Part shown: positions 20,082 to 56,455 of the stretch, piece after piece
Position numbering within the stretch: the first letter of the stretch is position 1
Layout of the letters: each line of letters begins with the position of its first letter
NCBI RefSeq assembly: GCF_009296025.1
Contig: NZ_CP045178.1
Coordinates: 7,006,001-7,070,000, forward strand
Direction of reading: 5' to 3'
DNA from: Streptomyces tsukubensis
Lineage (GTDB): Bacteria > Actinomycetota > Actinomycetes > Streptomycetales > Streptomycetaceae
Length of the DNA stretch: 64,000 nt
Made by a program: the position numbers and the translations under genes
The notes under the pieces: generated by a model
Seen by the model: the letters and a program-made list of their open reading frames with translations, nothing else
Databases searched by the model: none
Told to the model about the DNA's origin: nothing

Positions 20082-20120
20082 GGGGGGTTCCTCTCGGAGC
20101 AGGGATTGATCGACCATCAG

Positions 20121-20139
20121 TAAAGCAAGGCTTACCTTA
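20121..20139. promoter_or_regulatory. Iron box (IdeR/DmdR site) nearer cchA
   Basis: TAAAGCAAGGCTTACCTTA matches 13 of 19 positions of the consensus TTAGGTTAGGCTAACCTAA. It is the weakest of the six boxes. It lies 40 bases upstream of the cchA start. Confidence 0.65.
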
Positions 20140-20224
20140 GTCTGCAACGGCCTGTCCGGATTCGTGAGTTGGCCGAGGTGCCGGAGTTCCGTCGTCCGGT
20201 TTGCCTATCGACAGCTTCACAGGA

Positions 20225-20243
20225 TTAGCTTAGGCTCACCTAA
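20225..20243. promoter_or_regulatory. Iron box (IdeR/DmdR site) nearer cchB
   Basis: TTAGCTTAGGCTCACCTAA matches 17 of 19 consensus positions. It lies about 86 bases upstream of the cchB ATG. Confidence 0.85.
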
Positions 20244-20328
20244 GTTCTTGCGCTGCTCCGTCGGCGTGCTCACCCTTCGTACCTTCCCCACGCCTGACAG
20301 GCGGCTTCCCCGCACGAATGGGAGTGAC

Positions 20329-23059: not shown

Positions 23060-24117
23060 ACAGGACAGACGTGAACCCCTCGATGGCGCCGGGTGTGCGG
23101 CTCGGCCATGTGTCGTTCGTCTGGCGGCCCTGGCTCGTCCTGGTCACGCTGGTGCTCGCGGCGGCGGTCTTCCTGCTGTTCTGCCTCTCCATCAGCATCG
23201 GGGACTTCCCCATCGGCCTGTCCCGGGTGATGGCCACCCTCCTCGGCAACGGCGAACAGGTCGACCGGTTCGTGGTCATGGACCTGCGGATGCCGCGCGC
23301 CCTGGCCGGGCTCGTCGTGGGGATCGCACTCGGGGTCTCTGGGGCCATCACCCAGTCCGTCGCGCGCAATCCGCTCGCCAGCCCGGACATCCTCGGCATC
23401 ACCGGGGGCGCCGGCGCCGTCGCGGTCTTCCTCGTGACGGTGTCGGGCGGGGCCGCCGCGGCGGTGGTCAGCTCCGTGGGCCTGTCGGCCGCGGCGCTCG
23501 GGGGCGGTCTCGGCACGGGGCTGCTCGTCTACTTCCTGGCGTGGCGGCGCGGGATCGACGGCTTCCGGCTGATCCTCATCGGTATCTCGGTGAGCGCCGT
23601 CATGGAGGCCCTCACGACCTGGCTGCTGGTCTCCGCGGACATCAAGGACGTGGCGAGGGCCCAGGCGTGGCTGGTCGGTTCGCTGGACGACAGGTCATGG
23701 GGCCAGGTCGAGGTGGCCCTCTGGTGCACGCTCGCCCTCATGGTCGTCGTGGCCGCCGCCGCCTTCCAGTTCAAGCCGCTGCACCTCGGCGACGAGGTGG
23801 CCGCGGGTCTCGGCGTCCGGTACACGCGGGTACGGGCGGTCCTGCTGCTGTGCGCGGTCCTGCTGGCCGCGGTGGCGGTGAGCGCCGCGGGACCCGTGCC
23901 GTTCGTCGCGCTGGTGGCGCCGCAGGTGGCGATGCGCCTGACGAGGTACCCGACCCCGCCGATGTTCGCCTCGGGGCTCGTGGGGGCGTCGCTGCTGATC
24001 GGATCCGATCTGGTCGCGCGGGCCGCGCTGCCGATCTCCCTTCCCGTAGGGGTGGTCACGGCGGCGATCGGCGGGCCCTTCCTCGTCTATCTCCTGGTAC
24101 GGGCCAATCTGAAGTAG
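23056..24117 (+). CDS. cchD: Ferric-siderophore ABC permease (CchD)
   Basis: A 353-residue second FecCD-family permease that forms a heterodimer with CchC. Markers are MPRALAGLVVGIALGVSGAITQ, ARNPLASPDILGITGGA and the coupling helix GDEVAAGLGV. The ATG at 23056 overlaps the cchC stop (ATGA), which fixes the start; an in-frame reading upstream to 22963 is antisense-like to the cchC coding pattern. An iron box at 24143-24161 follows, so cchE has its own promoter despite the short gap. Confidence 0.93.
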   Translation: MNRTDVNPSMAPGVRLGHVSFVWRPWLVLVTLVLAAAVFLLFCLSISIGDFPIGLSRVMATLLGNGEQVDRFVVMDLRMPRALAGLVVGIALGVSGAITQSVARNPLASPDILGITGGAGAVAVFLVTVSGGAAAAVVSSVGLSAAALGGGLGTGLLVYFLAWRRGIDGFRLILIGISVSAVMEALTTWLLVSADIKDVARAQAWLVGSLDDRSWGQVEVALWCTLALMVVVAAAAFQFKPLHLGDEVAAGLGVRYTRVRAVLLLCAVLLAAVAVSAAGPVPFVALVAPQVAMRLTRYPTPPMFASGLVGASLLIGSDLVARAALPISLPVGVVTAAIGGPFLVYLLVRANLK

Positions 24118-24142
24118 TGGTCGCGCCCGGGGTAGATGGTAG

Positions 24143-24161
24143 AAAGGTTAGGCGAACCTAA
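24143..24161 (+). promoter_or_regulatory. Iron box upstream of cchE
   Basis: AAAGGTTAGGCGAACCTAA matches 16 of 19 consensus positions and lies 13 bases before the cchE GTG, between cchD and cchE. Confidence 0.85.
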
Positions 24162-24174
24162 ACAAGGGGGGCTT

Positions 24175-25059
24175 GTGGCCGCTCAGTTCATCACCGAGAT
24201 CGACTCCGGCGTCGACGGCGGACCCGGAGCAGAGGGCGAACCACGGCTGACAGCCAGGGGAGTCAGCGTCGGGTACGGCGACAGGACCGTCATCGACGGT
24301 CTCGACGTGGCCATCCCGCCCGGGGTGATCACCACGATCATCGGCCCCAACGGCTGCGGCAAGTCCACGCTGTTGCGCACCCTGACCCGGCTGCTCAAGC
24401 CCAGCAAGGGCGCGATCGTGCTGGACGGCCAGGACATCGACAAGCTCAGGACCAGGGACGTGGCGAAGAAGCTCGGTCTGCTTCCGCAGGCGCCGGTCGC
24501 GCCCGATGGGCTGACCGTGGCCGACCTGGTCGCCAGGGGCCGCCACCCGCATCAGAGCTGGCTGCGGCAGTGGTCCTCGGACGACGCGGGCGTCGTGGAG
24601 CGCGCGTTGGCCATGACCGGTGTGGCCGACCTCGCGGCGCGCCCGGTCGACTCCCTCTCCGGCGGGCAGCGCCAACGGGTCTGGATCTCGATGACTCTGG
24701 CCCAGGGCACCGACCTGCTGTTGCTCGACGAGCCGACCACCTACCTGGACCTGGCGCACGCGATCGACGTACTCGACCTGGTGGACGACCTGCACGAGTC
24801 GGGCCGCACCGTGGTGATGGTGCTGCACGACCTCAATCTGGCCACGCGCTACAGCGACAACCTCATCGTGATGAAGGAAGGGTCCGTTCTCGCGCAGGGG
24901 CATCCGCGTGAGGTGATCACCGCCGAGTTGCTGTACGAGGCGTTCGGACTGACAGCCAGGGTGATCGACGACCCGGTGGGCGACCGGCCGCTCATCGTGC
25001 CGATCGGCCGTGCCCATGTGCGTCTCGATCAGATCCCGGCGAAGGAATTCTCAAGTTAG
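24175..25059 (+). CDS. cchE: Ferric-siderophore ABC ATPase (CchE)
   Basis: A 294-residue FepC-type cytoplasmic ATPase. All motifs are intact: Walker A GPNGCGKST, Q-loop in LGLLPQAPVAPDG, signature [10 protein letters not shown], Walker B LLLLDEPTTYLDL and the switch His in VLHDLN. It powers uptake through CchC/CchD. The GTG at 24175 has a strong AAGGGGGG ribosome site directly upstream; an in-frame ATG at 24136 would place the iron box inside the coding sequence and is rejected. The stop codon TAG lies inside the next iron box. Confidence 0.94.
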   Translation: MAAQFITEIDSGVDGGPGAEGEPRLTARGVSVGYGDRTVIDGLDVAIPPGVITTIIGPNGCGKSTLLRTLTRLLKPSKGAIVLDGQDIDKLRTRDVAKKLGLLPQAPVAPDGLTVADLVARGRHPHQSWLRQWSSDDAGVVERALAMTGVADLAARPVDSLSGGQRQRVWISMTLAQGTDLLLLDEPTTYLDLAHAIDVLDLVDDLHESGRTVVMVLHDLNLATRYSDNLIVMKEGSVLAQGHPREVITAELLYEAFGLTARVIDDPVGDRPLIVPIGRAHVRLDQIPAKEFSS

Positions 25060-25156: not shown

Positions 25157-26224
25157 ATGCTCTTCCACAGAACGACGAGAACGACGACGCTCCAGAAGCC
25201 GTGGAGGCGGCTGGCGGCGGCGGTGACCGCGGCGACTCTCGGCGTCGGCCTCCTCGCGGGGTGCGGTTCGGACTCGGCGGACGGGAAGAGCGACAGCGCC
25301 CCGGCCGCGGCCTCCGGCGCCTTCCCCGTCACGGTGGAGCACGCGTTCGGCTCCACGAAGATCACCAAGGCTCCCCAGCGCGTCGTCACCGTCGGCTACA
25401 CCGACGACCAGGCCGTCCTGGCGCTCGGCGTCAAGCCGGTCGGCATGGTCGACCAGTACCCGAACCCCGCGGGCAAGAGCCCCGACATCAACACCCAGTG
25501 GCCCTGGGTGAAGGACAAGTGGGGCGACACCCGCCCCCAGGTCATCATGGAGAACGGTGACTCGGGCCCCAACTACGAGAAGATCGCGGCCCTTCGGCCC
25601 GACCTGATCGTCGCCGTCTACTCCGAGATCGACAAGGCCGGCTACGACAAGCTCTCCAAGATCGCTCCGACGGTGGGCCGTACGAAGGGCGAGAAGGAAC
25701 TGTTCAGCGCCCCCTGGCAGGACAACGCGGTGCACATCGCCAAGGCGCTCGGCAAGCAGGACGAGGGCACAAAGCTGGTCAAGGGCATTGAGAACAAGCT
25801 CGACGCGGCCAAGAAGGCGCACCCCGAGTTCGCCGACAAGACCGCAGTCGCGCTCTCCTGGTACAAGGACTCGGTGGCTCCCTTCACCTCCATCGACGTA
25901 CGCGGACGGCTGCTCACGGGCATCGGGTTCAAGTACCAGACGAAGATCGACAAGGTCGCTGACGGTGACTTCTCCACCGAGCTCTCTCCGGAGCGCGTCG
26001 ATCTGGTCGACAGTGACCGCGTCTTCGTCATCAACGACAAGGCCGACCAGGAAGCACTGAAGAAGTTCAAGCTCTTCACCAACCTGGACGCCGTGAAGAA
26101 GGGCAACGTCTCCTACCTGCTGGACAGTGAGGGCCCCGCCGTCGGCGCGGCCATGTCCCAGGGGACCCTGCTGTCCCTGCCGTACGCGATCGACCAGCTC
26201 GTCAAGTCGGCCGACAAGAAATGA
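25157..26224 (+). CDS. cchF: Ferric-siderophore-binding lipoprotein (CchF)
   Basis: A 355-residue FepB/FhuD-type (periplasmic-binding type 3) lipoprotein that captures ferric coelichelin outside the membrane. The signal ends with a canonical lipobox, LLAGC (Cys36). The mature domain begins with the typical GSTKITKAPQRVVTVGYTDD block and continues with RPDLIVAVYSEID. A Lys-rich linker helix follows. AAGGGA seven bases upstream fixes the ATG at 25157. The stop overlaps an ATG in another frame (ATGA), which opens a 38-codon frame leading to cchG. Confidence 0.94.
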   Translation: MLFHRTTRTTTLQKPWRRLAAAVTAATLGVGLLAGCGSDSADGKSDSAPAAASGAFPVTVEHAFGSTKITKAPQRVVTVGYTDDQAVLALGVKPVGMVDQYPNPAGKSPDINTQWPWVKDKWGDTRPQVIMENGDSGPNYEKIAALRPDLIVAVYSEIDKAGYDKLSKIAPTVGRTKGEKELFSAPWQDNAVHIAKALGKQDEGTKLVKGIENKLDAAKKAHPEFADKTAVALSWYKDSVAPFTSIDVRGRLLTGIGFKYQTKIDKVADGDFSTELSPERVDLVDSDRVFVINDKADQEALKKFKLFTNLDAVKKGNVSYLLDSEGPAVGAAMSQGTLLSLPYAIDQLVKSADKK

Positions 26225-26337
26225 CGACAGAACTCCCCGCCGACCGGACCGATCTGCCGATCGAACTGCCGCGTGGCAGGCCCGAACGGCCCCGGACCGA
26301 ACCCTCTCGTGGCCGGACCGGGCCGGTCCGCGGGTGA
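26221..26337 (+). CDS. Possible 38-residue coupling peptide, or displaced N-terminus of CchG
   Basis: ATG at 26221 overlaps the cchF stop as ATGA and opens a 38-codon frame beginning MTTELPADRTDLPIELPRG. Its stop TGA (26335-26337) overlaps the GTG used for cchG (GTGA). The double overlap would carry ribosomes from cchF to cchG. The peptide is Arg/Pro-rich with no recognised domain. It may instead be the true CchG N-terminus separated by a frame change. Existence as a real product is uncertain. Confidence 0.35.
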   Translation: MTTELPADRTDLPIELPRGRPERPRTEPSRGRTGPVRG

Positions 26338-28121
26338 GCGCCGTCGACACGCCGGCGGCCAAGGCGACCCTGCGTACGGCGACGGGACGCGAGGCCACCC
26401 GGTGGGTCAGGGCGCACTGCCGCGAAGTCCCTTGGCTCGCCTCGACCACCGTGGTCAGCACGGTGGCCGGGGCGGCGCTCCAGATCGTCCCCGTACTCCT
26501 GCTCGGCCGGGTGGTCGACGGCGTGGTCGACAAGGAATCACGGTCGGTCCTGGTCGAGGTCGGGGTCCTGATGGTGGCCGCCGCGCTCCTCGGCGCCGCG
26601 GTCACCGGGCTGTCGACGTACCTGATCGGGCGGCTGGGCGCCGATCTCCTCGCACGGCTGCGGGAAGGCGCTGTCAGGGCGGTGCTCGGACTGCCGAGCG
26701 CCAGGATCGAACAGGTCGGCAGGGGAGACGTACTGGCACGGGTCGGCGACGACGTGGCCGTGCTCTCGAAGGGCATCAGGACGGCGATCCCCACGGTGTT
26801 CTCCGCGGGGGTGCTGGTCGCCATCGCCACGGCCGGGATGTTCGGACTCGACTGGCGGCTCGGCCTGGCGGGGGCGGGCGCGCTGCCCGCGTACGCCCTG
26901 GCCCTGCGCTGGTATCTGCCGCGCTCGGCGCCGCTCTACCGGAAGCAGCGGGTGGCCCAGGCCGACCGGGCGCAGGCCCTGATCAGCGGCCTGGACGGGA
27001 TCGACACGGTCCGGGCCTACCGGCTCGAAAGCGCCTTCGGCGAGAAGGTCACCCGTGAGTCGTGGCGGGTGCGCGAACTCGGCATCGAGGTGTTCAGGTT
27101 CTTCGGCCGGTTCGTCGGCAGGGAGAACCGCGCGGAGTTCATCGGCCTCGTGCTGATCCTCGTGGTGGGGTACGCGCTGCTGGAGGCGGGCGCTGCGAGT
27201 CTGGGTGAGGTGTCGGCGGCCCCGCTGATGTTCCACCGGCTGTTCACGCCGCTCGGGGCCATCATGTTCACCTTCGACGAGGCGCAGAAGTCGGGCGCGA
27301 GTCTGACCCGGCTGGTCGGTGTGGTGGGGGAGCCCGCGCAGGAGCGGCTGGTGGGTGACGCGTCGGTGGCGCCGGCGCGGGCCGTGCCGTATCAGGTGAC
27401 GGTGGAGGGACTGACCTTCGGCTACCCCGATACGGAGGAGCCCGTCCTGCGGGATGTCGGCCTGACGATCCCGGCCGGTGGTTCGCTCGCCCTGGTGGGT
27501 GCGACGGGGGCAGGCAAGTCGACGCTGGCCGCGCTCGTCGCGGGCATCGGGACCCCGCAGGCCGGTTCCGTGCACATCGGGCCGCACGACCTCGCGGAAC
27601 TCGACGAGGCCGGGGCGCGGGCCCTGGTCACCATCCTCACGCAGGAGACGCACGTGTTCTCCGGGCCGCTCGCCGACGACCTGCGGCTGTCCGCCCCGGA
27701 GGCGACCGACGCGGAGTTGAGGGACGCGTTGGGCACGGCGGGCGCCGCCGGATGGGTCGACGCGCTGCCCGAGGGGCTCCGGACCCTGGTCGGTGAGGGC
27801 GGTGAGCGCCTGGACGGCACCAAGGTCGCCCAGATCGGCCTGGCCAGGCTGGTGCTGAGCCGTTCGCCCGTGGTGGTGCTCGACGAGTCGACGGCGGAGG
27901 CGGGCAGCGAGGGCGCCGCCGAGTTGGAGCGGGCTGTGCTGGCCGCGTGCGCGGGGCGCACCACGCTCTTCGTGGCGCACCGGCTGACCCAGGCGATGGC
28001 GGCGGACCGGATCGCCGTGCTGGACGCGGGGCGCGTGGTGGAGCAGGGCACCCACGATGAGCTGGTGGCGCTCGGCGGCAGGTACGCGCGACTGTGGCGG
28101 GCCTGGCGCGAGGGCAGTTGA
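26334..28121 (+). CDS. cchG: Half-size ABC exporter, active-site half (CchG)
   Basis: A 595-residue protein with a type I exporter membrane domain (six helices, about 30-310) fused to an ATPase domain. Walker A is intact (GATGAGKST, Lys395), as are the Q-loop (ILTQETHVF), Walker B (VVVLDEST, Asp517, Glu518) and the switch His (FVAHRL). The signature that should read LSGGQ is LDGTK (493-497), so this half cannot complete a normal second ATP site. CchI shows the opposite pattern. It is likely to export coelichelin as a CchG-CchI heterodimer. The start is uncertain: the GTG at 26334 has a weak ribosome site. Confidence 0.9.
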   Translation: MSAVDTPAAKATLRTATGREATRWVRAHCREVPWLASTTVVSTVAGAALQIVPVLLLGRVVDGVVDKESRSVLVEVGVLMVAAALLGAAVTGLSTYLIGRLGADLLARLREGAVRAVLGLPSARIEQVGRGDVLARVGDDVAVLSKGIRTAIPTVFSAGVLVAIATAGMFGLDWRLGLAGAGALPAYALALRWYLPRSAPLYRKQRVAQADRAQALISGLDGIDTVRAYRLESAFGEKVTRESWRVRELGIEVFRFFGRFVGRENRAEFIGLVLILVVGYALLEAGAASLGEVSAAPLMFHRLFTPLGAIMFTFDEAQKSGASLTRLVGVVGEPAQERLVGDASVAPARAVPYQVTVEGLTFGYPDTEEPVLRDVGLTIPAGGSLALVGATGAGKSTLAALVAGIGTPQAGSVHIGPHDLAELDEAGARALVTILTQETHVFSGPLADDLRLSAPEATDAELRDALGTAGAAGWVDALPEGLRTLVGEGGERLDGTKVAQIGLARLVLSRSPVVVLDESTAEAGSEGAAELERAVLAACAGRTTLFVAHRLTQAMAADRIAVLDAGRVVEQGTHDELVALGGRYARLWRAWREGS

Positions 28122-28153: not shown

Positions 28154-28172
28154 TTAGGTTAGCCTAACTTTC
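28154..28172 (+). promoter_or_regulatory. Iron box upstream of cchH
   Basis: TTAGGTTAGCCTAACTTTC has a perfect first half of the iron box and a decayed last quarter (15 of 19, counting the central base as neutral). It lies 28 bases before the cchH ATG. A direct repeat GTGACCCT (21-base period) lies just upstream. Confidence 0.8.
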
Positions 28173-28200: not shown

Positions 28201-31200
28201 ATGATGGAACCGAGCGCTCGTCTCGTACTGCTTTCCCCCACACACCTGGCCGACATACGCGGGCGGACCGGCGACCACGGCGACAGGACCATCGCGCAGG
28301 CGTGCGCCATCGGACTCGCGTACTGGGCGACGGGCCGGAGCCCCGAGGGGATCGAACTCGCCCCGGGCACCCTCTTCGCGGACGTCCTCGCCTGGGCGGC
28401 CAACGGCGGCGCCGGTACCGAGGGATGGCAGGCCGGCGAGGGCGGCGCGACCATCACCGTGCCCGAGGACGTCGACCCGGCCGAGGTGCGACTCGCCCTC
28501 GACGACCTGGCCGCCTTCCCCGACCGGCCCCTCTCCACCATCGGCCCCTTCACCGCCCGAGCCAGGATCGAAGCCCTGGCCGCGTGGAACGACACCCGCG
28601 CCGACCGGGACCGCCCCACCCTCATGGAGATGTTCCGCGAGCAGGCGCGCGCCAGGCCCGACGCCGTCGCGGTCGTGGACGAGAACCGGTCGCTGACCTA
28701 CCGCGAGGCGGCCGAACTCTCCAGCCAACTCGCCCACCACCTGATCGCACGCGGGCTCACCGCGGAACAGGTCGTCGGCATCTCGCTTGACCGGTCGGCG
28801 GAGATGGTCATCGGGCTGCTCGGCGTCCTCCAGGCCGGGTGCGCCTTCGTGCCGCTCGACCCTCGGTGGCCCACCGAGCGCAGGGCCGTCGTCATCGAGG
28901 ACTCCGGGGTCGTGCTGCAGTTGGGTGACACGGGCCGGAGCGCGGCCGGGGAACCCGAGGCCGTCGCGGTCGACCTGGACGACTGGAAGTTCGGCGCGCT
29001 CGCCTCCGGGGGCACCGGGATCACCGTCCCGGGCGACGCCCTCGCGTACGTGATCTTCACCTCGGGGTCGACCGGGCGGCCCAAGGGCGCGATGATCCGC
29101 CACAAGGCGATCAGCGAACGCCTGCTGTGGCAGGTGAACGAGATCCTGGGCTTCGGCCACGACGACGCCTCCCTCTTCAAGGCGCCGCTCTCCTTCGACA
29201 TCTCCATCAACGAGATCTTCCTCCCCCTGGTCTCCGGGGGCAGGCTGGTGGTCCTCAGGCCCGGCGGTGAACGCGACCCGCATCACCTGCTCGACGTGAT
29301 CGCCGGGGAGCGCGTCACCTTCACCTACCTGGTCTCCTCCATGCTGGACGTGCTGCTCGACATGGCGGGCGACTCCGGTCACCTCGACAGCCTGCGACAC
29401 GTGTGGTGCGGCGGCGAGGTGCTCACCCCCGAGCTGTACGAACGGTTCCGTACGCAGCTCGACATCCCGCTGTACCACGGGTACGGCCCGGCCGAGACGA
29501 CGATCGGTGTCTCGCACGTCATCTACCGGGGCGCCGCGGAACGCCTCTCCACATCGATCGGCAGGGCCAACCCCAACACCCAGCTGTACGTGCTCGACGA
29601 CGAACTGCGGCCCGTCCCCGTCGGTGTCGGCGGGGAACTGTACGCGGGCGGGCTGCTGTTGGGGCGCGGCTACGTCAACGCGCCGGCCCTGACGGCGTCC
29701 CGGTTCGTCGCCAACCCCTTCGCGGACGACGGCTCCCGGCTGTACAGGACGGGCGACCTCGCGCGGTTCGCCCCCGACGGATCCCTCGACTTCCTCGGCC
29801 GCGCCGACAACCAGATCAAGATCCGCGGTATGCGGCTGGAGATCGAGGACGTCGAGGTCGGACTCGCCGAGCACCCCCACGTACGGCACACCTGCGTCGT
29901 GGCGAAGAAGAACGCGGCGGGCGGCACCTACCTGGTCGGATACGCGATCCCCGCGGCGGGGAGCGACGAGCTGCGGGCCGACGAGGTCAAGGCGTGGGCC
30001 GCCGAGCACATGGTCGAGTACATGGTGCCCACCCACATCGTCATCATGAGGGAGTTCCCGCTCACCGCCAACGGCAAGCTCGACCGCGGGGCGCTGCCGG
30101 AACCCACCCGGGGGACGGGCTCGCTCCAGGCGCCCGTCACCGAGAACGAGCGGGCGGTATGCGCGGCCGCCGCGCGGGTGCTCCAACTCGAAGAGGTCGG
30201 CGTCGACCAGGACTTCTTCCAGCTCGGCGGCGACAGCCTGCTGGCCATCTCACTGCTGAGCGCGTTGCGCGAAGCGGGGCTCTACGTCACAGCGCGGCAG
30301 ATCTTCACCCACAGCGTCGTAGGGGCGCTGGCCGCCGTGGCCGGGCGCGAGGACCACTCCGCCGCGGACCACGACGACATCGCGACCGGGCCCGTCGTGG
30401 GATCGCCCATCGTGCGCTGGCTCGGCGAGACCACGGACGCCGTCGACGGCTTCGTACAGTCGGTGGTGGTGAACACCCCGGCGGAGCTGACCGGGGAAGC
30501 CCTCGACATCATCCTCACCGCCCTGACCGAGCGGCACGACATGCTCCGCGCCAGGCTGGTGCGCGGCCCGCGCTGGGGCTTCGACGTCCCGACGGGCCGA
30601 ACCGCGGAACCGGTGTGGCGGCAGAGCGACCTGCCGGTCGACGAGTGCGTCGCCCTCGCCACCGAAGCGCTGGACCCGGACGGCGGCGTGATGCTGCGTG
30701 CCGTCTGGCGCCGCGCGGAGCGGCAACTCGTCCTCGTCGTCCACCATGTGGTCATCGACGGAGTGTCCTGGCGGATCCTGCTGGAGGACCTGGCCACGGC
30801 GTGGGGACAGGTCTCCTCCGGGGTGCCCGTCCAACTACCGCGTGCGGGAACGTCGTTCAGGCGCTGGACGCAGCTGCTCGAACGTGCGGCGGCCGACGCG
30901 GACAGCGCGTACTTCAGCCGCCCCCTGCCGGGCCCGGACCGGCCCCTGGGCGGACGCGAGCTGACCGCGGCGGACACCGTGGCGCGGGAGCGGACCAGGA
31001 CCCTCGTGACCGATCCCGGGACCACGGCCGCGCTGCTGGGCGAGATCCCCGCGAAGTTCCACACGGGCGCGGGTGACGTACTGCTCACCGCGCTCGCCGT
31101 CGCCCTCGCCCGCCGCCGCCAGGACCTCGGCCAGGACCAGACCTTCGCCCACATCGAACTCGAAGGCCACGGCCGCGAAGGACGGTTCGTGGCGGACGCC

Positions 31201-34200
31201 GGGGGGTTCGAACCCGAACTGTCCAGGACCGTGGGCTGGTTCACCACCCTGTTCCCCGTGACCGTCGATCCAGGGACCGCCACCGATCCGACCGCGCCCG
31301 CCCACCTCGCCGCCGCGCTCAAGGCCGTCAAGGAAGACCTCGCCCGGGTGCCGGGCAACGGCCTGTACTACGGCGCCCTGCGCTACCTGACCGGCACCGC
31401 GTTCGACGCGCCCGCACCACAGGTCCTCTTCAACTACCTGGGCCGCTTCGACACGGCCACATCCGGGCAGTGGCAGCTCGCGGGAGCCACCGGGCAGTTG
31501 GGCGAGAAGCGCGACCCGAGGATGCGCCTGCCGCGCGCCCTGGAGTTCAACGCCATCGCGGAACCGTCCACCACCGGCGCGTACGCCCTCGTCACCACGG
31601 TCTCCTGGCCCGAAGGGATGTTCACCGACGAGGACATCACGACACTCGGCCGGTACTTCCAGGAGGCCCTGACCGGCCTCGCCCAACTCGCCGCACACGA
31701 GCAGGGCGGGCACTCCCCCTCGGACTTCGGCCTCGTGCCGCTCACCCAGTCCGACGTCGACGACCTGGAAGGGCCCGCGCTCAGGGACATCCTGCCGCTC
31801 ACCCCGTTGCAGGAGGGCCTGTACTTCCACTCGGTCTTCGACGGCGACTCCGCGGGCTCCTACGTCGAGCAGCAACTGCTCACGCTCGACGGCGAGGTGG
31901 ACGCCGGGCGGCTCGCGACGGCCGCCACCCGGCTGCTCGCGCTCCACCCGAACCTGGCCGCGCGGTTCGTGGCCCTCGCCGACGGCCGGGTGGTCTCCGT
32001 ACTGGAGGACGCGGTCACGGCCCCCTTCACCACGCTGGAGCGGCCAGGCATCACCGACGACGCGATACGGGAGCTCGCCGAGCGGGACCGCCGCGCCGGA
32101 TTCGACCTCGCCACCGGGCCGCTCATGCGGTACACGCTCATCCGTACCGGCGCGGGACACCAGGTCCTGGTGCAGACCGTGCACCACATCATCGCCGACG
32201 GCTGGTCGGTGCCGCCGATGCTGCGCGCCCTGCTCGCCGAGTACCACGCGCCGGGGACCGTGCACCCCGTCGGCGGCTTCCCCGACTACGTGCACTGGCT
32301 CGCAGGACGGGACGACGACGAGAGCGACCGCGTCTGGAGCGGGGAACTGGCCGAACTGACCGGACCCTCACTGGTCGCCGAGGGCCACACCCCCTCCGAG
32401 CTGTTCGCCGACATCGCGCAGGTACCGGCGGACGATCCCGAAGCCGCCGCCAGGTCGGCCGGTGTGCCGCTGAGCGTGGCCGTGCACAGCGCCTGGGCGG
32501 TGACGCTCGGCTCCGTCCTGCACGGCAAGGACGTGGTCTTCGGCTCCACGGTCTCCGGGCGCGACGCGGACGTGCCCGGCATCGGCGACATGGTGGGTCT
32601 GTTCATCAACACCATTCCTGTACGCGCCCGTTGGGGTACCGCCACCACCGCGCGCGAACTGCTCGCCTCCGTACGGGAACACCAGAGCGCCGTCCTGCCG
32701 CACCAGCACGTCTCGCTGGCGAGGATCGGCCGCCTGGCCAAAACCGGGTCCCTCTTCGACACACTGGTGGTGTTCGACGTCGCGGCCGACGTGGAGAGCC
32801 TCCGGGAGGCAGACCACGATCTCGTCGTCACCGACATCGTCAACGAGGGCGCCCCGCACTACCCGTTGACGCTGGTCGTCGAGCGCGCCCCCGACGGAGG
32901 CCCGCGCTTCAACCTGATCTACGACGGCGCGCTCCTGCGGGAGGCGAGCGCCCAAGCACTCCTGCACACGTTCACCCGGACCCTCACCGGGCTGCTCACC
33001 CGCCCTGACGCCCTGGTCGACGACCTGACACCAGAAAGCGCCCGGCGCCCCGCGCATGTCCCCGCGACGACCCTGGGCGAGCTGTTCGACGAGGCCGCGC
33101 ACCGCGACCCGGCCGCCACCGCGGTCACGCAGTGCGCCCTCGACGGCCGTTCCAGGTCCCTGACCTACGGTGAACTCTCTTACGCCAAGGCCGAACTGGC
33201 CACCGATCTGCGCGGGTCCGGGGTCGGCCCCGGCAGCCGGGTCGCCGTGGCCGTGCCCCGCTCCCTGGAGCAGGTGATCGCCCTTGTCGCCGTCGTCACG
33301 GCGGGCGGCGCTTACGTACCGCTTGACCTGGCCTACCCCGACGAACGGCTGGAGTACGTCCTCGCCGACGCCGACCCGCAGGTCGTCCTGGTCGACCGTG
33401 AGCAGCGCGAACGCCTCACGCGGCTCCTGGACAGGGCGGGCGTCCCGGCCCGCGTGCTCGTGGCGGGGGACGCGCCGCCGTCAGGGACCGGAGGGGCGGC
33501 GGAGCCGCGGGACGACGCCGCTCGCGGGGCAGGGCCGCACGACCTCGCCCCGCGGGACGACGCCCCGCGCGGGGCGGGGCCGCACGATCCCGCGTACGTC
33601 ATCTACACATCGGGGTCGACCGGCCGGCCCAAGGGCGTCGTCGTCCCGCACGCCGCCGTGGTGACGCTGCTGGCCAACACCCGCGCCGACATGGGGTTCG
33701 GACCGGACGACGTGTGGGTCCAGTTCCACTCGTTCTCCTTCGACTTCGCCGTCTGGGAACTGTGGGGCGCGCTGACGCACGGCGCTCGACTGCTCCTGCC
33801 GGAGTACGCGCTGACCCGCTCGCCCGTCGACTTCCACCGGCTGGTCCGCGAACGTGCCGTGACCGTCCTGAACCAGACCCCGTCGGCCTTCTACCAGTTC
33901 GTCGAGGCCGACCGGCACGCCACAGAACCGGTCACCGCCCTGCGCAGGATCATCTTCGGCGGCGAGGCGCTCGACCTCGGACGGGTGCGCGGCTGGGTCG
34001 AGCGGCACGGCGTCTCCTCGCCCGAGCTGGTCAACATGTACGGCATCACCGAGACCACCGTCCACGTCACCCACCGGGTACTGACCGTGGACGACTTCCG
34101 TCCCGGCGCCGACGCCAGCCCGATCGGTGGCCCCGTCCCCGGCCTGCGGATCCATCTCCTCGACGAAGCGCTGCGGCCCGTACCGCCCGGCCGGGTCGGC

Positions 34201-36852
34201 GCCATCTACGTCGCGGGCGACCAGGTCTCCCTCGGCTACCTCGGCAGGCCGGGGCTGACCGCCGGCCGGTTCGTGGCCGACCCGTTCGCCGGCGACGGCT
34301 CCCGCATGTACCACACGGGCGACCTGGCCCGCCGTACGCTCGACGGCGAGCTGGAGTTCGCGGGCCGCTCCGACGACCAGGTGCAGCTGAAGGGGTTCCG
34401 TATCGAGCTGGGCGAGGTGGAGTCCGCCGTCAGGGCGCTCGACGGCGTGGTCGACGCGGCCGTCACCGTGGCGGACAGCGCCGACCACCTCGTCGCGCAC
34501 ATCGTGGGGAACGCCCCCGGCGACCTCACCGCGCTGCTGGCCGCCGAGCTGCCCGCGCACATGGTGCCGGGCCTGGTGCTGCCGGTCGAAGCCCTGCCCT
34601 TGACGGTCAACGGCAAGCTGGACCGTCAGTCCCTGACCGAGCGCGCGGCGCGGGACACGGCACCGACGGCCGGGGTCGAGCACGTGGTGCGGGGCGCGGC
34701 CCCGGGGACCGCCGACGACTCCGCGCTCGCCGCACTGATCGACATCTTCGCCGGTACGCTGCCGGGCTCCGATCCGGACGCCGACACGGACTTCTTCGTG
34801 GCCGGGGGCGACAGCATCGTCGCCATCACCGTGATCCACCGGGCCAGGGCGCTCGGCCTGCCGATCGCACCGAGGGACGTGTTCCTCTTCAGGACACCCC
34901 GCGCACTCGCCGAGCACCTGGCGACGAGCACACCTCGGGCGGCGGAGACCGCGCCCGCCCTCCGCGTGGACGGCCCCGTGCCACCGACCCCCATCATCCT
35001 GCGGCAGCGGGAACTCGGCGGCCCGCTCGCCGGGTTCGCCCAGGCCAGGACGGTGGAGGCGCCCGAGGGCGTGGAGCTCGCCGACATCGAACGCGCCGCC
35101 CACACCGTCGTGGCCGCCCACCCCGCGCTCCGGCTGAGGCTCCGTGCCGAGCACGGGGTGTGGGCGCTGCGCACGGAACCCGCCCGCGAGGTCACCGTCG
35201 TGACCTCGGACGCGGCCGACGCGACAGCCGCCGCCAACGAGGCGGCCACCCGGCTCGACCCCGGGACGGGTCAGGTCATCGCTCTCTCGTGGCTCGCGGC
35301 GAGCAGGACGGTGGTGGTCACCGCGCATCACCTCGCCGTCGACGCGGTGTCCTGGCTGATCCTCCTCGACGACCTGGCCACGGCCCTGCGCGGGTCCGCC
35401 CTCGCGGCTCCGACCACGTCCTACGCCGAGTACGCGGAAGCCCTGGCGGTGCGCTCGGCGGAGGAGACCGACGGCCTCGGCCACTGGATCACCACGCTCG
35501 GGGCGCCGCCGCTGCTGCCCGCTGTCGAGGGGCGGCGCGAGACCACCGTCGTCCTGCCGCCGGAGGCGAGCGACCGGGTCACGCGCGAAGCGCCCACGGC
35601 GCTCGGCGTCGGCCTCACCGAGCTGCTGTGCGGCGCACTGCGTACCGCGCTCACGCGGATCCAGTCCGACCCCACCGACCTCGCGGTCGAGCTGGAGCGG
35701 CACGGCCGGGTCCCCGCAGGGGAGCACCACGACTACACCCGCACCGTCGGCTGGTTCACCTCCATCGCGCCCGTGCGGCTCACCCCGCACACCGACCCCG
35801 TCGCGGCCGCCCGCGAGGTCGAGGAGCGCCAGCAGGACGAGGCGGGGCACACCGCCTACGGCCGCCTCAGGTACCTCAACCCGCAGACGGCCCCACTGCT
35901 CACCGCCCAGCCCCAGGTCCTCTTCAACTACCTGGGCCGCGGCGGCGAGTCGCAGGCTCCCCGCATCACGGGCGCCGACCGGCCGAGCCCCTACGCCGTC
36001 GAGGTCAACGCCTGGACCGACGACGCCACCGGCTCCCTGCACGCGGCCTTCACACTCGCCGACTCCGTCCCCGACGAGATCACTGACGGCTGGCTGAGGG
36101 CGCTGGAACACGTCGCCGACGCCGCCACGACAGCCGAGCGCACGGCCCCCGTCACCCCGCTCCAACGCGGCCTGTTCTTCCAGGCCCAGATGGCGGGAAC
36201 GGCGGGACACTACGTAGCCCAGAGCTACTTCACCTTCGACCGGCGCCTCGACACCGACGCCCTGGCCGACGCGATGGCGTACGTGATCGCGCGCCACCCG
36301 GTCGTCGGCGCCGGTTTCACCACGGACGACACGGGAAACCCCGTCCAGGTCCTGAAGGCGGGCCGACGGGTCGACGTCCGTACCATCCATGTGCCGACCG
36401 AGGCGGCGGTCGAGACCCTGCGCGCCAGGGACCGCGACACGGGATTCGACCCGGCGCGGCCCCCGCTGGTCCGGCTCACCGTCGTGCGGCTGCCCAACGG
36501 TGGCGACGGGCTGCTGCTCAGCTACCACCTGCTGCTGTGGGACGGCTGGTCGCGCGAGATCGTCCTGCGTGACCTGTTCGACGCCTACCGCGCCGTCCTC
36601 GCGGGCGAGCCGCTCGACGCCTCTCCGGCGACGCCGGGCTTCGAGGAGTACGCGAGGAGGCTCGCCGCCAAGGATCTCGCCGTATCGGAACGCTTCTGGG
36701 CGGAGCACCTGACGGGGCTGACCGGTCCGACCCTGCTCGCGGGGGCGCGGCCCTCCCTCTCGGACGAGCTGCCGCGCGCGCTCGTGCACACCCTCTCCGC
36801 CGATCAGTCGGCGCTGCTGGGGACGCGGCCAAGAACCACGGTGTCACCCTGA
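28201..36852 (+). CDS. cchH: Coelichelin non-ribosomal peptide synthetase CchH, 5' part (modules 1, 2 and half of C3)
   Basis: Domains: about 130 leading residues; A1 (about 135-635), T1 (Ser679), E1 (730-1170, HHVVIDG at 848-854); C2 (1183-1610, HHIIADG at 1328-1334), A2 (1620-2145), T2 (Ser2205), E2 (2255-2640, HH at 2376-2377); C3 from about 2650. The pocket codes are DINYWGGIGK for A1 (formyl-hydroxyornithine) and DFWNIGMVHK for A2 (threonine), as established for S. coelicolor CchH. The two epimerisation domains predict D residues at the first two positions. The frame stops at 36852 within C3, while the homologous sequence continues in another frame from 36822. One missing G in the run 36819-36822 explains the break. 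Start: ATG 28201; an 8-codon frame at 28178 overlaps it. Confidence 0.94.
33505..33594 (+). repeat. In-frame 45-bp tandem duplication inside the CchH A2 domain
   Basis: Two 45-base units (33505-33549 and 33550-33594) encode [15 protein letters not shown] and [15 protein letters not shown] directly before the A3 core motif [11 protein letters not shown]. The insert lies on a surface loop of the A domain and keeps the frame. Confidence 0.85.
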
Positions 36853-39200
36853 ACGCCGTACTGACCGGCGCGTTCGGTCTCCTTCTCGGGGCGTGGACGG
36901 GCCGGGGCGACGCCGTGTTCGGCGTGACCGTCTCGGGCCGCGAGGGCGAGGGCCTCGCCGAGATCGTCGGCGTACTGCTCAACACCGTGCCCACGTGGAC
37001 GCGGCCACGGCCGGGCGACTCGGTCGGCGCGTACCTGGCGGGCATCCAGTCGGCCAGGATCGAAGCGATGGACCACGAGCACCTCGGGCTCGGCGAGATC
37101 CAGCGGGCCAGCGGACACGACACGCTCTTCGACAACCTGTTCGTGCTCCAGAACTTCCTTGACATGGACGCCTTCGCGGAGATGAACGCCACACACGGCA
37201 TCACCTCGGTCAAGGCCGACGACTCCACGCACTACCCGTTCACCTGGGTCGTCACCCCCGGCGAACAGCTCACCGTCAAACTGGAGTACCGCGACGGAGA
37301 CCAGGAGAACGCGCACCGCCTGCTCGACGGCTACCTGAGCCTCCTGGAGGAGCTGGCCCGTACGACAGGACCGGTCGGAGCGCTGCGCGGGGTGGCACCG
37401 GATCCCGAGCCCGTCGAACGCACCGACATCGGCACGGACACCGTCGTCGACCGGTTCGACCTGGCCGCCGACCGTGACCCCGACCGTGTCGCGCTCGTCG
37501 CCCACGGGTCGACCATGACCTTCGGGGAACTGCGCGACCGCAGCCGCGTGTTGGCCGGTGTACTCGCCGGGCGGGGCGTCGGGCCCGAGAAGGCCGTCGG
37601 GCTCGCGATCCCACGCTCCCTCGACTCCATCGTGGCCCTCTTCGCCGTACTGCGCGTCGGCGCCGCGTACGTACCGCTGGAGCTGGACCACCCCGACGAG
37701 CGGATCGCCGCCATCGTCGCGGACGCCCGCCCTGACGTGACCCTCACCGTGAGCGCGGTCTCGCCCCGGCTGACGGGCGACACCATCGAACTGGACCGGC
37801 CGTTGCCCGGGGCCGAGCCCTTCGTGACGTTCGCGCCGGACGACAAGGACCGCCTGCGGCACCCCGCCTACACCATCTACACCTCGGGCTCGACCGGGAA
37901 GCCCAAGGGCGTGGTCACGGAGTACGCCGGGCTCACCAACATGCTCGTCAACCACCAGCGACGGATCTTCGAACCGGTCCTCGCCGACCACGGCCACAGG
38001 ACCTTCCGCATCGCGCACACCGTGTCGTTCGCCTTCGACATGTCGTGGGAGGAGCTGCTGTGGCTGGCCGACGGCCACGAGGTGCACATCTGCGACGAGG
38101 AACTGCGCCGTGACGCGCCCCGGCTGGTCGAGTACTGCCTCGACCACGGCATCGACGTCATCAACGTGACACCGACCTACGCACAGCAACTGGTGGCCGA
38201 GGGGCTGCTCGACGACCCCGCCCGGCGCCCCGCTCTCGTACTGCTCGGCGGCGAGGCGGTCACCCCCGCGCTGTGGCGGCGGCTGGCGGAGACCGAGGGC
38301 ACCGCGGGCTACAACCTGTACGGACCGACCGAGTACACCATCAACACCCTCGGCGTCGGCACCTTCGAATGCCAGGACCCGGTGGTGGGCGTGGCGATCG
38401 ACAACACCGAGGTGTACGTACTCGACCCGTGGCTGAGGCCACTGCCCGACGGCGTCCCCGGCGAGCTGTACGTGTCGGGCGTCGGCATCGCGCGCGGCTA
38501 CCTCGGGCAGAGCGCCCAGACCGCGCACCGCTTCGTCGCGTGCCCGTTCGGCCGGCCCGGCGAGCGCATGTACCGCACGGGGGACCTGGTGGTCCGCCGC
38601 CCCGACGGGAACCTGACCTACCTGGGCCGCACCGACCAGCAGGTCAAGATCCGGGGGCACCGGGTCGAACTCGGCGAGGTGGAGGCCGCTTTCGCCGCCC
38701 ACCCCGCGGTGCGGTTCGCCGCCGCGGTCGCCCAACGCGACCCGCAGGTCGACGGGGCCTACCGGCTGGCCGCCTACCTCGTCCTCGAAGGGGCGGGGCT
38801 GGCGTCGGTCGCGACGGAGGCGGGCGCGGCACTCCCCGACTTCCTGCGCCCGACGCACTACGCCCAGGTCGACACCATCCCGCTGACCGTGAACGGGAAG
38901 GCCGACACCAAGGCGCTGCCCGAGGCCAAGCCGCTCGGCGCGCTGACGACGGCGGCGGAGCGCGGTCCGGAGACCGCGACGGAGACCGCCGTGTGCGCGT
39001 TCTTCGCCGAGGCACTGGACCTGGACGACGACGAGGTGAGCGCGGTCGGCGACTTCGTCTCCCTCGGCGGACACTCGATGCTGGCGGTACGGCTGATCGG
39101 ACTGCTCCGCCGGGAGTACGGTCCTGTGGTCACCATCCGCGATCTGTTCACCCTGCGAACCCCGGAAGCGATTGCCCGCCACCTCGATGACAACTCCTGA
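36822..39200 (+). CDS. cchH: Coelichelin synthetase CchH, 3' part (rest of C3, A3, T3)
   Basis: This frame continues the C3 domain exactly where the 5' part loses it ([12 protein letters not shown], then the conserved [15 protein letters not shown] block). It goes on to A3 (about 37440-38960) and T3 ([10 protein letters not shown]). The A3 pocket code DMENLGLINK fits hydroxyornithine. No thioesterase domain follows, as in known CchH; release is attributed to CchJ. Restoring one G at 36819-36822 gives a single protein of 3666 residues, close to the S. coelicolor length. As written there is no good start; the first in-frame GTG is at 36915. The end overlaps cchI by 14 bases. Confidence 0.92.
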
Positions 39201-40890
39201 CACCCAGCGGCCCCGACCGGGGTCCCACATCCTGCGCACCGCTCTGCGCCGCAACATCGCCGCCATGGCCTCGGGCACCGTCCTCATGGGCCTCTACCAG
39301 GCGGGGGAGACGGCCTTCCCCATCGCGCTCGGCCTCATCGTCGAGCACACCTTGCGGGGCGACCGGAACCTCGGCTCGCTCGGCCTGTCGATCGCCGCGC
39401 TCGCCGTGATCATCACGACCGTCTCGCTGTCGTGGCGGTTCGGCATGCGCGTCCTGCAGAAGGCCAACACCACCGAGGCGCACCGCTGGCGGGTACGGGT
39501 CGCCGCGTGCGGACTCCAGCCGGTGGCCAGGGACGTCGACCTCAAATCCGGCGAGGTGCTGACCATCGCCACCGAGGACGCCGACCAGACGGCCGACATC
39601 ATCGAGGTGGTGCCGCTGCTGATCAGCTCCCTGGTCGCGGTGGTGGTCGCCGCGGTCGCGCTCGGCATGGCCGATCTCCGGCTCGGCCTGCTGGTGATCG
39701 TCGGAACCATCGCGATCCTCTCGGTCCTGAGCGTGATGTCCGAGCGGATCGGCAGCAGCACCCGCGAACAGCAGGCCAGGGTGGCGCGGGCGGGCGCGAA
39801 GGTCGCCGACCTGATCACGGGACTGCGCCCGCTGCACGGCTTCGGCGGCAACCACGCCGCGTTCCTCTCCTACCGCGAGGTCAGCACGGAGGCCAAGCGA
39901 CAGGCGGTCACCGTCGCCAAGGTGAACGGCGCCTACGCGGGCGCCGCACTGGTCCTCAACGCGGTACTCGCCGTCGCGGTGACCCTGACGGCCGGCTGGC
40001 TGGCCTTCACGGGCCACATCACCGTGGGGGAACTCGTCATGGCCGTCGGCCTCGCGCAGTTCATCATGGAACCGCTCAAGATGTTCTCCGAGATGCCGAA
40101 GTACGTGATGGTCGCGCGGGCGTCGGCGCAGCGCATGGCGCTCGTACTGGCCGCCCCGCCCGTGACCGCCCCGGGCGCCGGGCGTCCGGCGGCGGGCGGG
40201 GAACTGGAGATCGACTGCCTCAGATACGGGAGTCTGCGCGGCCTGAAGTTCCAGGTGGGAGCGGGGGAGTTCGTGGCGATCGCCGCCTACCAGCCACGCG
40301 CGGCCACCGACCTCGCCTCGATCCTCGCCGTGAACGTCCCGCCGGAAGCGTACGAGGGCGCGGTACGGGTCGGCGGACAGGAGGTCGCCGCGCTCGCGGT
40401 GGCGGCGGTACGCGAGCACATGCTGGTCAACCCCTACGACGGGGAGATCTTCGCGGGGACCCTGCGCACCAACATCGACCCCTCGGGCACCAGCGGATCG
40501 GTCCCCGAGGCCGTCGAGGCGTCCATGCTGACCGATGTCGTCGCCCTCCACCGGGAGGGGCTCGACTACGCCGTCCGCGACCGAGGGGCCAACCTCTCCG
40601 GCGGGCAACGCCAACGCCTCTCCCTGGCCCGCGCTTTGGCAGCCGACACCGACGTCCTGGTCCTGCGCGATCCGACGACGGCTGTCGACGCGGTCACGGA
40701 ACAGATCATCGCCCGCGAGGTCGCCAAGGTACGCCAGGGACGCACCACCGTCGTGATCACCAGCAGCCCGGCCCTCCTCGACGTCGCCGACCGTGTCCTC
40801 GTCCTGGACGACGGCGTCATCATCGCCGAGGACACCCACCGCAACCTCCTCGCCACCGACGAGGACTACTGTCTGGCCGTGGCTCGGTGA
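39187..40890 (+). CDS. cchI: Half-size ABC exporter, degenerate-site half (CchI)
   Basis: A 567-residue type I exporter half with six membrane helices (about 25-310) and an ATPase domain. Here the signature LSGGQRQR (470-477) is perfect. Walker A is gone ([15 protein letters not shown] in place of GxxGxGKST), Walker B reads [10 protein letters not shown] (Arg494-Asp495 instead of Asp-Glu), and the switch His is Ser (VITSSPALL). It therefore cannot hydrolyse ATP alone but can donate its signature to CchG. The ATG at 39187 overlaps the end of cchH; an upstream in-frame start at 39172 is possible. It lies at the 3' end of the cchH transcript, before a terminator hairpin. Confidence 0.92.
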
Positions 40891-41003: not shown

Positions 41004-42107
41004 TCAGCCGAGCGCCCAGGCGACATCCGTCAGCAGGGCGCCTCGCCAGCCGGCCCGGTCGTGGTCCGACGCCGTCCGTGAGACCCGCACCGTCGCGCCG
41101 GCCTGTTCGGCGAGGGCCTCGGTGATCTCGCAGTGGGGCAGCATGCGCTTCTCGTGCTCCCCGACGGTGAACGCGGCCCGCAGACCGGACAGGTCGGGGC
41201 GCTCGCGCAGGCGCGCCGCGATGGTGCCGCCGACCGGACCGCCGAGGGGGTCCGCCCGGCTCGGCGCCTCGGGAGTCCACCAGAACGACGGGGACTGGCA
41301 GGCGATCCTGGTCACCAGGTCGGGGTGTTCGAGCGCCGCGTACATCGCGCTGAGCCCGCCGAGGCTCTGCCCGGCCACCACCAGCCTGTCCAGGTCGGCG
41401 ACGACGTCCGCCTCGGCCACCAGCGGAAGCAGTTCGTCACGGACCGCCTCCCAGAGCCCGGGTTCGCACCCGAATTCGCCCTCTCTGTCCTTGGCCGGGA
41501 GGAAGACGAGGGTGACGGGCTCCATCTCGCCACTGGCGACGGCCGAGTCGAAGGCGGTCACGGCGGGATGCAGGTACAGCCAGTCGTCCCCGTCGAGCAG
41601 CAGCACCACAGGGCCGCCACCGCCCGCCGGGTGGATCCGTACGGTGCGACGTCCGCCGAGCCGGGTGCTGGTCCAGCGGAGCCGGGTGCCGGGGACGGGA
41701 AGGACGTCGTCGGCGCCGACGAGGGGCCAGTGCGGCTGGGCGGGGGCGTCCGGGGTCGCGGCGACGGACCGGTCACCGCCCGCGCCCGCCGGGTTGAACG
41801 GGTCGGATCGGGCCACGCCGTCCACGACGAACTGGTAGGTGAAGCGCAGCCGTTGGGGCGTGCGCACCTCCGCGTACCAGCAGTCGGTCGCGCCCCACCG
41901 GCGCAGAGGCACCGGCGGGGACCAGCTCTCGAAGTCGACGGTCGCCGCCGAGCCGCGCCACAGGAACAGGGTCATCCAGCCACCGTCGGTGTCGCTCGCG
42001 GACAGAAAGGCGGGTGTCCGCGCCGCCTCCCAGAACGCGTCGGTACCGGCTCCGCCTGCCAGGCCGTACCGGGCGAAGGGGCTCTCCGTGTCGGCCGCGG
42101 GGCGCAT
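41004..42107 (-). CDS. cchJ: Coelichelin esterase (CchJ), Fes/IroE-like alpha/beta hydrolase
   Basis: A 367-residue protein with an N-terminal Ig-like enterochelin-esterase domain (about 10-145) and a C-terminal alpha/beta hydrolase. The nucleophile elbow is AGQSLGG (Ser248). The likely catalytic His is His349 in SDHDRAGWR. In the coelichelin pathway it is thought to release the tetrapeptide from CchH, which lacks a thioesterase, or to hydrolyse the ferric complex. AAGGAG lies six bases before the ATG at 42105-42107, which decides between two adjacent ATGs. Its promoter region holds a 17/19 iron box at 42155-42173. Confidence 0.94.
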   Translation of the reverse strand: MRPAADTESPFARYGLAGGAGTDAFWEAARTPAFLSASDTDGGWMTLFLWRGSAATVDFESWSPPVPLRRWGATDCWYAEVRTPQRLRFTYQFVVDGVARSDPFNPAGAGGDRSVAATPDAPAQPHWPLVGADDVLPVPGTRLRWTSTRLGGRRTVRIHPAGGGGPVVLLLDGDDWLYLHPAVTAFDSAVASGEMEPVTLVFLPAKDREGEFGCEPGLWEAVRDELLPLVAEADVVADLDRLVVAGQSLGGLSAMYAALEHPDLVTRIACQSPSFWWTPEAPSRADPLGGPVGGTIAARLRERPDLSGLRAAFTVGEHEKRMLPHCEITEALAEQAGATVRVSRTASDHDRAGWRGALLTDVAWALG

Positions 42108-42154
42108 GAACATCTCCTTGTGAGACGGGAGTCGAAGAGCTAAGCTCGCCAATA

Positions 42155-42173
42155 TTAGGGGAGCCTAACCTAA
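42155..42173. promoter_or_regulatory. Iron box between cchJ and cchK
   Basis: TTAGGGGAGCCTAACCTAA matches 17 of 19 consensus positions (central base neutral). It lies 47 bases upstream of cchJ and 193 bases upstream of the divergent cchK, so it may control both. Confidence 0.88.
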
Positions 42174-42366: not shown

Positions 42367-42579
42367 ATGAGCACCAACCCGTTCGACGACCCCGAAGGCC
42401 GTTTCCTGGTCCTGGTGAACGGGGAGGGGCAGCACTCCCTCTGGCCGTCCTTCGCCGAGGTGCCCGGGGGATGGACGGTCGCCCTCGGTGAGAACTCACG
42501 AGAGGTGTGCCTGGAGTTCATCGAGGCCAACTGGACCGATCTGCGCCCCCGGTCCCTCTCGGCGTCAACGGAATCCTGA
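42367..42579 (+). CDS. cchK: MbtH-like protein (CchK)
   Basis: A 70-residue MbtH-family chaperone that binds adenylation domains and activates them. The family pattern is complete: NPFDD near the start, [22 protein letters not shown], then [18 protein letters not shown] with the three conserved tryptophans. The expected partners are the A domains of CchH. A GGAGG site lies nine bases before the ATG. It is the last gene of the coelichelin locus. Confidence 0.96.
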
Positions 42580-56454: not shown

Positions 56455-56455
56455 A

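What the first reader, a model, noticed from the sequence alone, without database searches (positions are those of the whole stretch)
36814..36852. cchH reading frame broken by an apparent one-base loss in a G run
In frame 1 the sequence reads CTG CTG GGG ACG and stops at 36852. From 36822 the next frame reads GAC GCG GCC AAG and continues the condensation domain with [10 protein letters not shown], the expected homologous sequence, through to the end of the synthetase. Five G instead of four at 36819-36822 would give one 3666-residue protein, close to the known CchH length. Either the base is a sequencing error, or the strain has lost or conditionally controls coelichelin synthesis. All the rest of the pathway looks intact, which favours an error or a recent mutation.
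Basis: partly seen in the sequence, partly recalled or inferred. Interest (0 to 1): 0.8.

Follow-up and report, generated by a model that had tools for sequence, protein, structure and literature searches.

The report
Broken coelichelin synthetase gene, uptake intact
A Streptomyces carries the genes for the iron scavenger coelichelin, but its main assembly enzyme is cut short by one missing DNA letter (a recent mutation or an assembly slip), and some relatives have lost that enzyme entirely while keeping the import genes.

Summary
The break is in the sequence as described. The cchH frame from 28201 ends at TGA 36850-36852; the homologous frame resumes at 36822, and GC phase switches at the same place. 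All 84 relatives inspected cross this spot unbroken (one, L057, has its own frame change upstream). 'One G lost from a G run' is not supported: 83 of 84 relatives have an arginine codon here and none has more than three Gs, so the missing base most simply separated two shorter G stretches.

Error or mutation cannot be settled from the assembly. Two stricter comparisons found 0 frameshifts in about 232 kb of this genome's core, the gene has no second lesion, and selection looks unrelaxed. I put recent mutation at 0.50 and error at 0.44.

Wider context: of 392 Streptomyces genomes, 87 have the CchF receptor and 83 of those have cchH. The other four lack cchH and CchJ but keep cchC-D-E-F-G and cchI; a CchI tree needs three changes. 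Loss of synthesis with uptake kept therefore recurs. Retention of CchG/CchI in all four makes an import role for this exporter-fold pair a testable idea.

The parts
28201..36852 (+). cchH, 5' open frame: 2883 residues, modules 1 and 2 and the first half of the third condensation domain
   Evidence: cch names recalled from S. coelicolor
36817..36825 (+). site of the missing base (CTG GGG ACG where relatives read Leu-Arg-Glu/Asp)
36850..36852 (+). premature TGA stop
36822..39200 (+). cchH, 3' part in the other frame: second half of the third condensation domain, then A and T domains
36100..36819 (+). first half of the third condensation domain (PF00668 positions 2-214); the second half resumes at position 243
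19134..20147 (-). cchA-like formyltransferase
20164..21702 (+). cchB-like ornithine monooxygenase (listed start probably too early)
21980..24117 (+). cchC and cchD, FecCD permeases (ORFs 21980-23059 and 22963-24117)
24136..25059 (+). cchE-like ATPase (start uncertain)
25157..26224 (+). cchF-like ferric-siderophore binding lipoprotein
26127..28121 (+). cchG-like ABC half-transporter of exporter fold (start uncertain)
39187..40890 (+). cchI-like ABC half-transporter; its ATG overlaps the end of cchH by 14 bases
41004..42152 (-). cchJ-like esterase
42367..42579 (+). cchK, MbtH-like protein
20225..20243 (.). iron-box-like site near cchA/cchB
   Evidence: consensus recalled
24143..24161 (.). iron-box-like site near the cchE start
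28154..28172 (.). iron-box-like site just upstream of cchH
42155..42173 (.). iron-box-like site between cchJ and cchK

Best explanation
The strain's cchH carries a genuine, recent one-base deletion in the third condensation domain. Shown: the reading frame ends inside that domain, so the first product is 2883 residues long and lacks the second half of the domain and the last A-T unit. Inferred: no coelichelin is made, because module 3 cannot load or join its hydroxyornithine; cchI, whose start overlaps the end of cchH, may also be less translated. The receptor and permease genes and the iron boxes are intact, and the genome has three other IucA/IucC-type siderophore synthetase genes. The cell would then be a coelichelin non-producer that can still take the siderophore up from neighbours, an early step of a loss that other Streptomyces have completed.
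For: One lesion in an otherwise clean gene. 0 frameshifts in 115,910 bases (99 genes, G005 queries) and 0 in 116,160 bases (115 genes) of the same genome's core, so it is not an obviously error-rich assembly; the same method finds a frameshift in G005 with queries from two genomes. The missing base is not a homopolymer base in relatives. Loss of cchH with uptake kept occurs in other genomes: 4 of 87 with CchF have no cchH, three changes on the CchI tree. Other siderophore synthetase genes are present (3 PF04183 matches).
Against: No raw reads and no second isolate: the closest listed full-length protein is 82% identical and one search shows no near-identical 3' fragment among its 120 listed of 4026. 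No sign of decay beyond the one base: dN/dS to the 14 closest of 70 relatives is 0.297 against 0.278 (sd 0.022) among them upstream, and 0.165 against 0.147 (sd 0.024) downstream, which fits an error equally well. 77 of 83 cchH in the survey are open at full length, so breakage is rare. The 95% upper limit on errors (about 1 per 77 kb) still allows 0.14 in this 11-kb gene.
Confidence: 0.5

Rival explanations
1. Assembly or sequencing error: the real chromosome has an unbroken cchH and the strain makes coelichelin.
For: A single one-base difference in 11 kb, no other lesion, no relaxed selection, and all other cch genes and iron boxes intact. The site is G+C-rich. Three other assemblies (G195/L273, L062, G363/L057) also show breaks in cchH that could be assembly faults.
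Against: 0 frameshifts in about 232 kb of this genome's core in the two stricter screens. Relative to relatives the missing base is not one of a homopolymer. Looser screens left 3 frameshift rows and 13 stop places in G000, which I set aside, 5 of the stop places unexamined.
Confidence: 0.44
2. Programmed or conditional expression: ribosomes slip back one base on the four Gs, or transcripts slip, so some full-length protein is made.
For: Four Gs at 36819-36822 would let a glycine tRNA re-pair one base back (from the sequence).
Against: No X XXY YYZ heptamer; no unusual downstream structure (z -0.54); 84 of 84 relatives have an unbroken reading here and none has four Gs.
Confidence: 0.02
3. The gene is now two cooperating proteins, the second started inside the old gene.
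For: The break falls between two parts of the C domain (PF00668 positions 214 and 243). In-frame starts exist at 36915 (GTG) and 37068 (ATG, with AGGA upstream).
Against: Those starts lie 31 and 82 codons into the second part, so some of the domain would be missing; intact relatives are fused.
Confidence: 0.03

Closest known systems
CchH, coelichelin synthetase (SCO0492 of Streptomyces coelicolor), and its cluster
   Same: Gene content, three-module make-up and expected length; PMC5932044 passages give A(orn)/T/E-C/A(thr)/T/E-C/A(orn)/T and 3,644-3,666 residues for relatives.
   Different: The window's reading frame is broken in the third C domain.
Siderophore non-producers that keep uptake (for example pyoverdine cheats of Pseudomonas, PMC5583256, listing and abstract start only)
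   Same: Synthesis lost while receptor and permease stay intact.
   Different: Here it is inferred from sequence only, in a Gram-positive with several siderophores; uptake of coelichelin by non-producers was not measured.
Exporter-fold siderophore importers IrtAB and YbtPQ (PMC10246721, PMC10967856, abstract starts only)
   Same: CchG and CchI are two ABC half-transporters of exporter fold that stay with the uptake genes when synthesis is lost; entry 6p6i, recalled as YbtPQ, is among the matches of CchG.
   Different: True exporters match as well or better; direction of transport is untested.

Membership tests
Coelichelin biosynthetic cluster (cchA-K) | formyltransferase, ornithine monooxygenase, FecCD permeases, ATPase, binding protein, two ABC half-transporters, NRPS, esterase and MbtH together | tested here: met
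Coelichelin biosynthetic cluster (cchA-K) | NRPS close in sequence to the coelichelin family along its whole length | tested here: met
   in two frames
Coelichelin biosynthetic cluster (cchA-K) | one unbroken NRPS frame of about 3640 codons | tested here: not met
   the frame ends after 2883 codons
Coelichelin biosynthetic cluster (cchA-K) | coelichelin produced | not testable with these tools
   needs mass spectrometry
Programmed -1 frameshift gene | slippery heptamer with a downstream stimulating structure, conserved in relatives | tested here: not met
Siderophore non-producer with uptake kept | synthesis gene inactivated | tested here: inconclusive
   broken in the assembly; error not excluded
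Siderophore non-producer with uptake kept | receptor and permease genes intact and iron-regulated | tested here: met
   regulation inferred from iron-box-like sites
Siderophore non-producer with uptake kept | uses siderophore made by others | not testable with these tools
   needs cross-feeding
IrtAB/YbtPQ-type importer (for CchG/CchI) | two exporter-fold half-transporters that import a ferric siderophore | tested here: inconclusive
   fold by Pfam and PDB sequence matches; kept with uptake genes in 4 of 4 loci without cchH; direction not tested

The most novel reading that the evidence does not exclude
The coelichelin system of Streptomyces repeatedly decays into an uptake-only state, by point lesions as in the window and by clean removal of cchH and cchJ elsewhere. 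The ABC pair CchG/CchI, of exporter fold, stays with the receptor in each such locus seen because it works in import or handling of ferric coelichelin, like IrtAB or YbtPQ.
Probability: 0.3. Interest if true: 0.6.

Novelty: new member of a known kind. Interest (0 to 1): 0.35.

Why it matters
The lesion itself is ordinary: a frameshift in a probably dispensable synthetase gene, real or not. If real, the strain is a natural coelichelin non-producer with its uptake system intact. The genus-wide pattern (4 of 87 receptor-bearing genomes have no cchH and 3 more have it broken inside a contig, of which at least one, G363, may be an assembly fault; none of 83 has cchH without the receptor) makes siderophore cheating in Streptomyces testable, and gives a genetic reason to test in which direction CchG/CchI transport.

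Tried and rejected
G-run loss (five Gs before the loss): rejected as the simplest reading, because 0 of 84 relatives have Gly or four Gs here. A change to G followed by loss of a G would need two steps.

Programmed frameshift and split protein: see the rivals.

Frameshift-ridden assembly: not supported. The first, looser screen was noisy because antisense and over-extended ORFs served as queries. In one search G000 showed 3 frameshift rows and 14 stop rows (13 places) over 146,573 bases. The frameshift rows were set aside: at 195746 a G005 query crosses in one frame; 72516 and 348400 recur with the same G009 query in G005, so they look like features of the query. Of the 13 stop places 8 were looked at: several lie near an alignment end, where a query start may be over-extended, others on a frame overlapping another matching gene; these explanations are inferred. 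Five were not looked at. In the stricter run the G009 queries still show those 3 frameshift rows and 4 stop rows in G000, while the G005 queries show none. The 4 stop rows lie within 11 residues of an end of the query or alignment.

A second 400-kb pair shared almost no genes; the G009 part later matched another part of G000. The alignment mixed strands and was replaced. One search stopped on a script error and was rerun.

The first tree table compared only missing and damaged cchH rows and was uninformative; one search compares missing with all others.

L057 was first read as lacking the 5' part of cchH. On checking, cchF and cchB of the same genome (G363) lie on another contig, C6, cchF within 10 kb of its low end, and the 3' part of cchH lies on C1 beside unrelated sequence. 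A mis-join or rearrangement is as likely as decay, so it is not counted as firm.

Paper searches for a report of coelichelin non-producers or uptake-only cch loci showed none in titles and abstract starts. Only passages of PMC6780079, PMC5932044 and PMC13293324 were seen (of the last, 12 of 23 places). This is not proof of absence in print.

Full report
WHAT IS THERE. The window lies in an 8.6-Mb, two-contig genome (C2:7006001-7070000). Its best DNA matches around the site are four genomes of the same genus at 82-85% identity. Contig lengths of G007 and G009 equal those listed with P0080 (S. ferrugineus) and P0053 (S. coeruleorubidus), so the genus is Streptomyces; the species was not identified. 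The cluster is a coelichelin cluster: formyltransferase, ornithine monooxygenase, two FecCD permeases, ATPase, binding protein, ABC half-transporter, NRPS, second half-transporter, esterase, MbtH (cch names recalled). Iron-box-like sites lie at 20225, 24143, 28154 and 42155 (6 matches at 4 places, none in 100 shuffles; consensus recalled).

THE BREAK. The NRPS frame from 28201 ends at 36852; the homologous frame continues from 36822 to 39200. Piece by piece against an intact relative there is one frame change and no stop. GC by codon position changes phase at the same place, with GC3 of 0.92 on both sides. The break splits the third condensation domain between PF00668 positions 214 and 243, so the first product lacks the second half of that domain and the last A-T unit.

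WHICH BASE. In 119 protein relatives, the listed part of 2221 found, the residue is R in 118 and K in 1. The four Gs of the window therefore look like two shorter stretches brought together by loss of the base between them.

ERROR OR MUTATION. Genes of relatives were aligned to stretches of the same genome. G005 genes gave 115,910 bases from 99 genes with no frameshift or stop. A second set gave 116,160 bases from 115 genes with no frameshift and four stop rows close to an end of the query or alignment. Against this, G009 queries gave 3 frameshift rows and 4 stop rows in the first stretch, which I set aside for the reasons given under Tried and rejected, and five stop places of the looser screen were not examined. 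The method can see frameshifts: one gene of G005 shows one with queries from both other genomes. With 0 in about 232 kb, the 95% upper limit is about 1 per 77 kb, or 0.14 in an 11-kb gene. Between the window and the 14 closest of 70 relatives dN/dS averages 0.297 upstream and 0.165 downstream, within one standard deviation of the relatives' mutual values (0.278, sd 0.022; 0.147, sd 0.024), so a loss would be recent. I put mutation at 0.50 and error at 0.44.

HOW COMMON IS BREAKAGE. Among the 80 named loci, 70 cchH are open over at least 3500 codons, 2 are not (L057, L062), and 8 run open to the end of the stretch held, two of them already beyond 3600 codons. Among 392 Streptomyces genomes, 83 have the cchH 3' part at E <= 1e-280; 77 of these have a full-length open frame. 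The six short ones: G000 (875 codons), G363 (897) and G195 (2021) end inside contigs; G123 and G337 correspond to L051 and L063, which run off their contigs; G253 (1405) was not resolved. G363 is L057 (same coordinates); its cchF and cchB lie on another contig, so a mis-join or rearrangement is possible, besides one frame change. L273 (G195) shows three frame changes and L062 one. Any of these may be assembly faults.

UPTAKE WITHOUT SYNTHESIS. CchF (E <= 1e-100) occurs in 87 of 392 genomes: all 83 with cchH, plus G031, G090, G178 and G322. In these four, 20-kb stretches hold cchC, D, E, F, G and I at 80-91% identity, nearly full length and without stops, and no cchH, J or K. The distance from the cchG stop to the matched cchI start is 110, 109, 207 and 1,434 bases. 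Whole-genome searches found no CchJ in them (0 of 4 at E <= 1e-20, against 3 of 3 in G195, G363 and G009). CchB at 88% was found only in G090; G031 and G178 have a 61% relative elsewhere. The best-scoring NRPS matches are 44% identical and none listed exceeds 48%. The TAG that one search reports in CchF of G322 lies at the end of the match, since one search shows an open 349-codon CchF there; my notebook entry that calls it in-frame is superseded. Iron-box-like sites lie upstream of cchF in G031, G178 and G322 with 2-3 mismatches, and weakly in G090 with 5. On a CchI tree of 83 rows the four loci need three changes, also when only starred branches count; quick method, and the rows with cchH were chosen by closeness to the window's cchH, so the sample is biased. 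Loss of synthesis with uptake kept therefore recurs, and CchG and CchI stay with uptake in 4 of 4. That is odd for a dedicated exporter and natural for an importer of the IrtAB/YbtPQ kind (abstract starts). PDB sequence matches do not decide. A rival reading, that these loci serve another siderophore made elsewhere in the genome, is not excluded.

WHAT IT MEANS FOR THE WINDOW. If the base is really missing, the strain has taken a first step on a path that relatives have completed. Three other IucA/IucC-type synthetase genes in its genome would soften the cost. If the base is an error, the strain is an ordinary coelichelin producer and the comparative pattern stands without it.

Noticed in passing
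L274 (G031), L275 (G178), L276 (G090), L277 (G322), 20 kb each: Coelichelin uptake loci (cchC-D-E-F-G and I) without cchH, cchJ or cchK; cchG and cchI lie next to each other.
   Followed up: partly
window 26127-28121 and 39187-40890: CchG and CchI have exporter fold but stay with the uptake genes where synthesis is lost, which suggests an import role.
   Followed up: partly
window, CchH residues 2775-2782 (third C domain): The motif reads YHLLLWDG where the first two such domains have VHHVVIDG and VHHIIADG; 116 of 119 relatives have exactly YHLLLWDG. The second, usually catalytic, histidine (recalled) is replaced across the family.
   Followed up: no
L062, L057 (= G363), L273 (= G195): cchH of three other assemblies also reads as broken, at other places: one, one and three frame changes. 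Decay or assembly fault was not decided.
   Followed up: partly
proteins P0124, P0132, P0140, P0148, P0155: C-terminal CchH fragments of 589-1295 residues on contigs of 48-418 kb, possibly further broken cchH genes (P0140, S. tendae, has 19 members).
   Followed up: no
G000:C2:4460001-4860000: 400 kb beside the core that shares almost no genes with the G009 and G005 stretches held (1-2 orthologues per query set).
   Followed up: no
window 56408-64000 +: Very long open frame (over 2,500 codons) running off the window's end, preceded by several small ORFs on the same strand. Not analysed.
   Followed up: no
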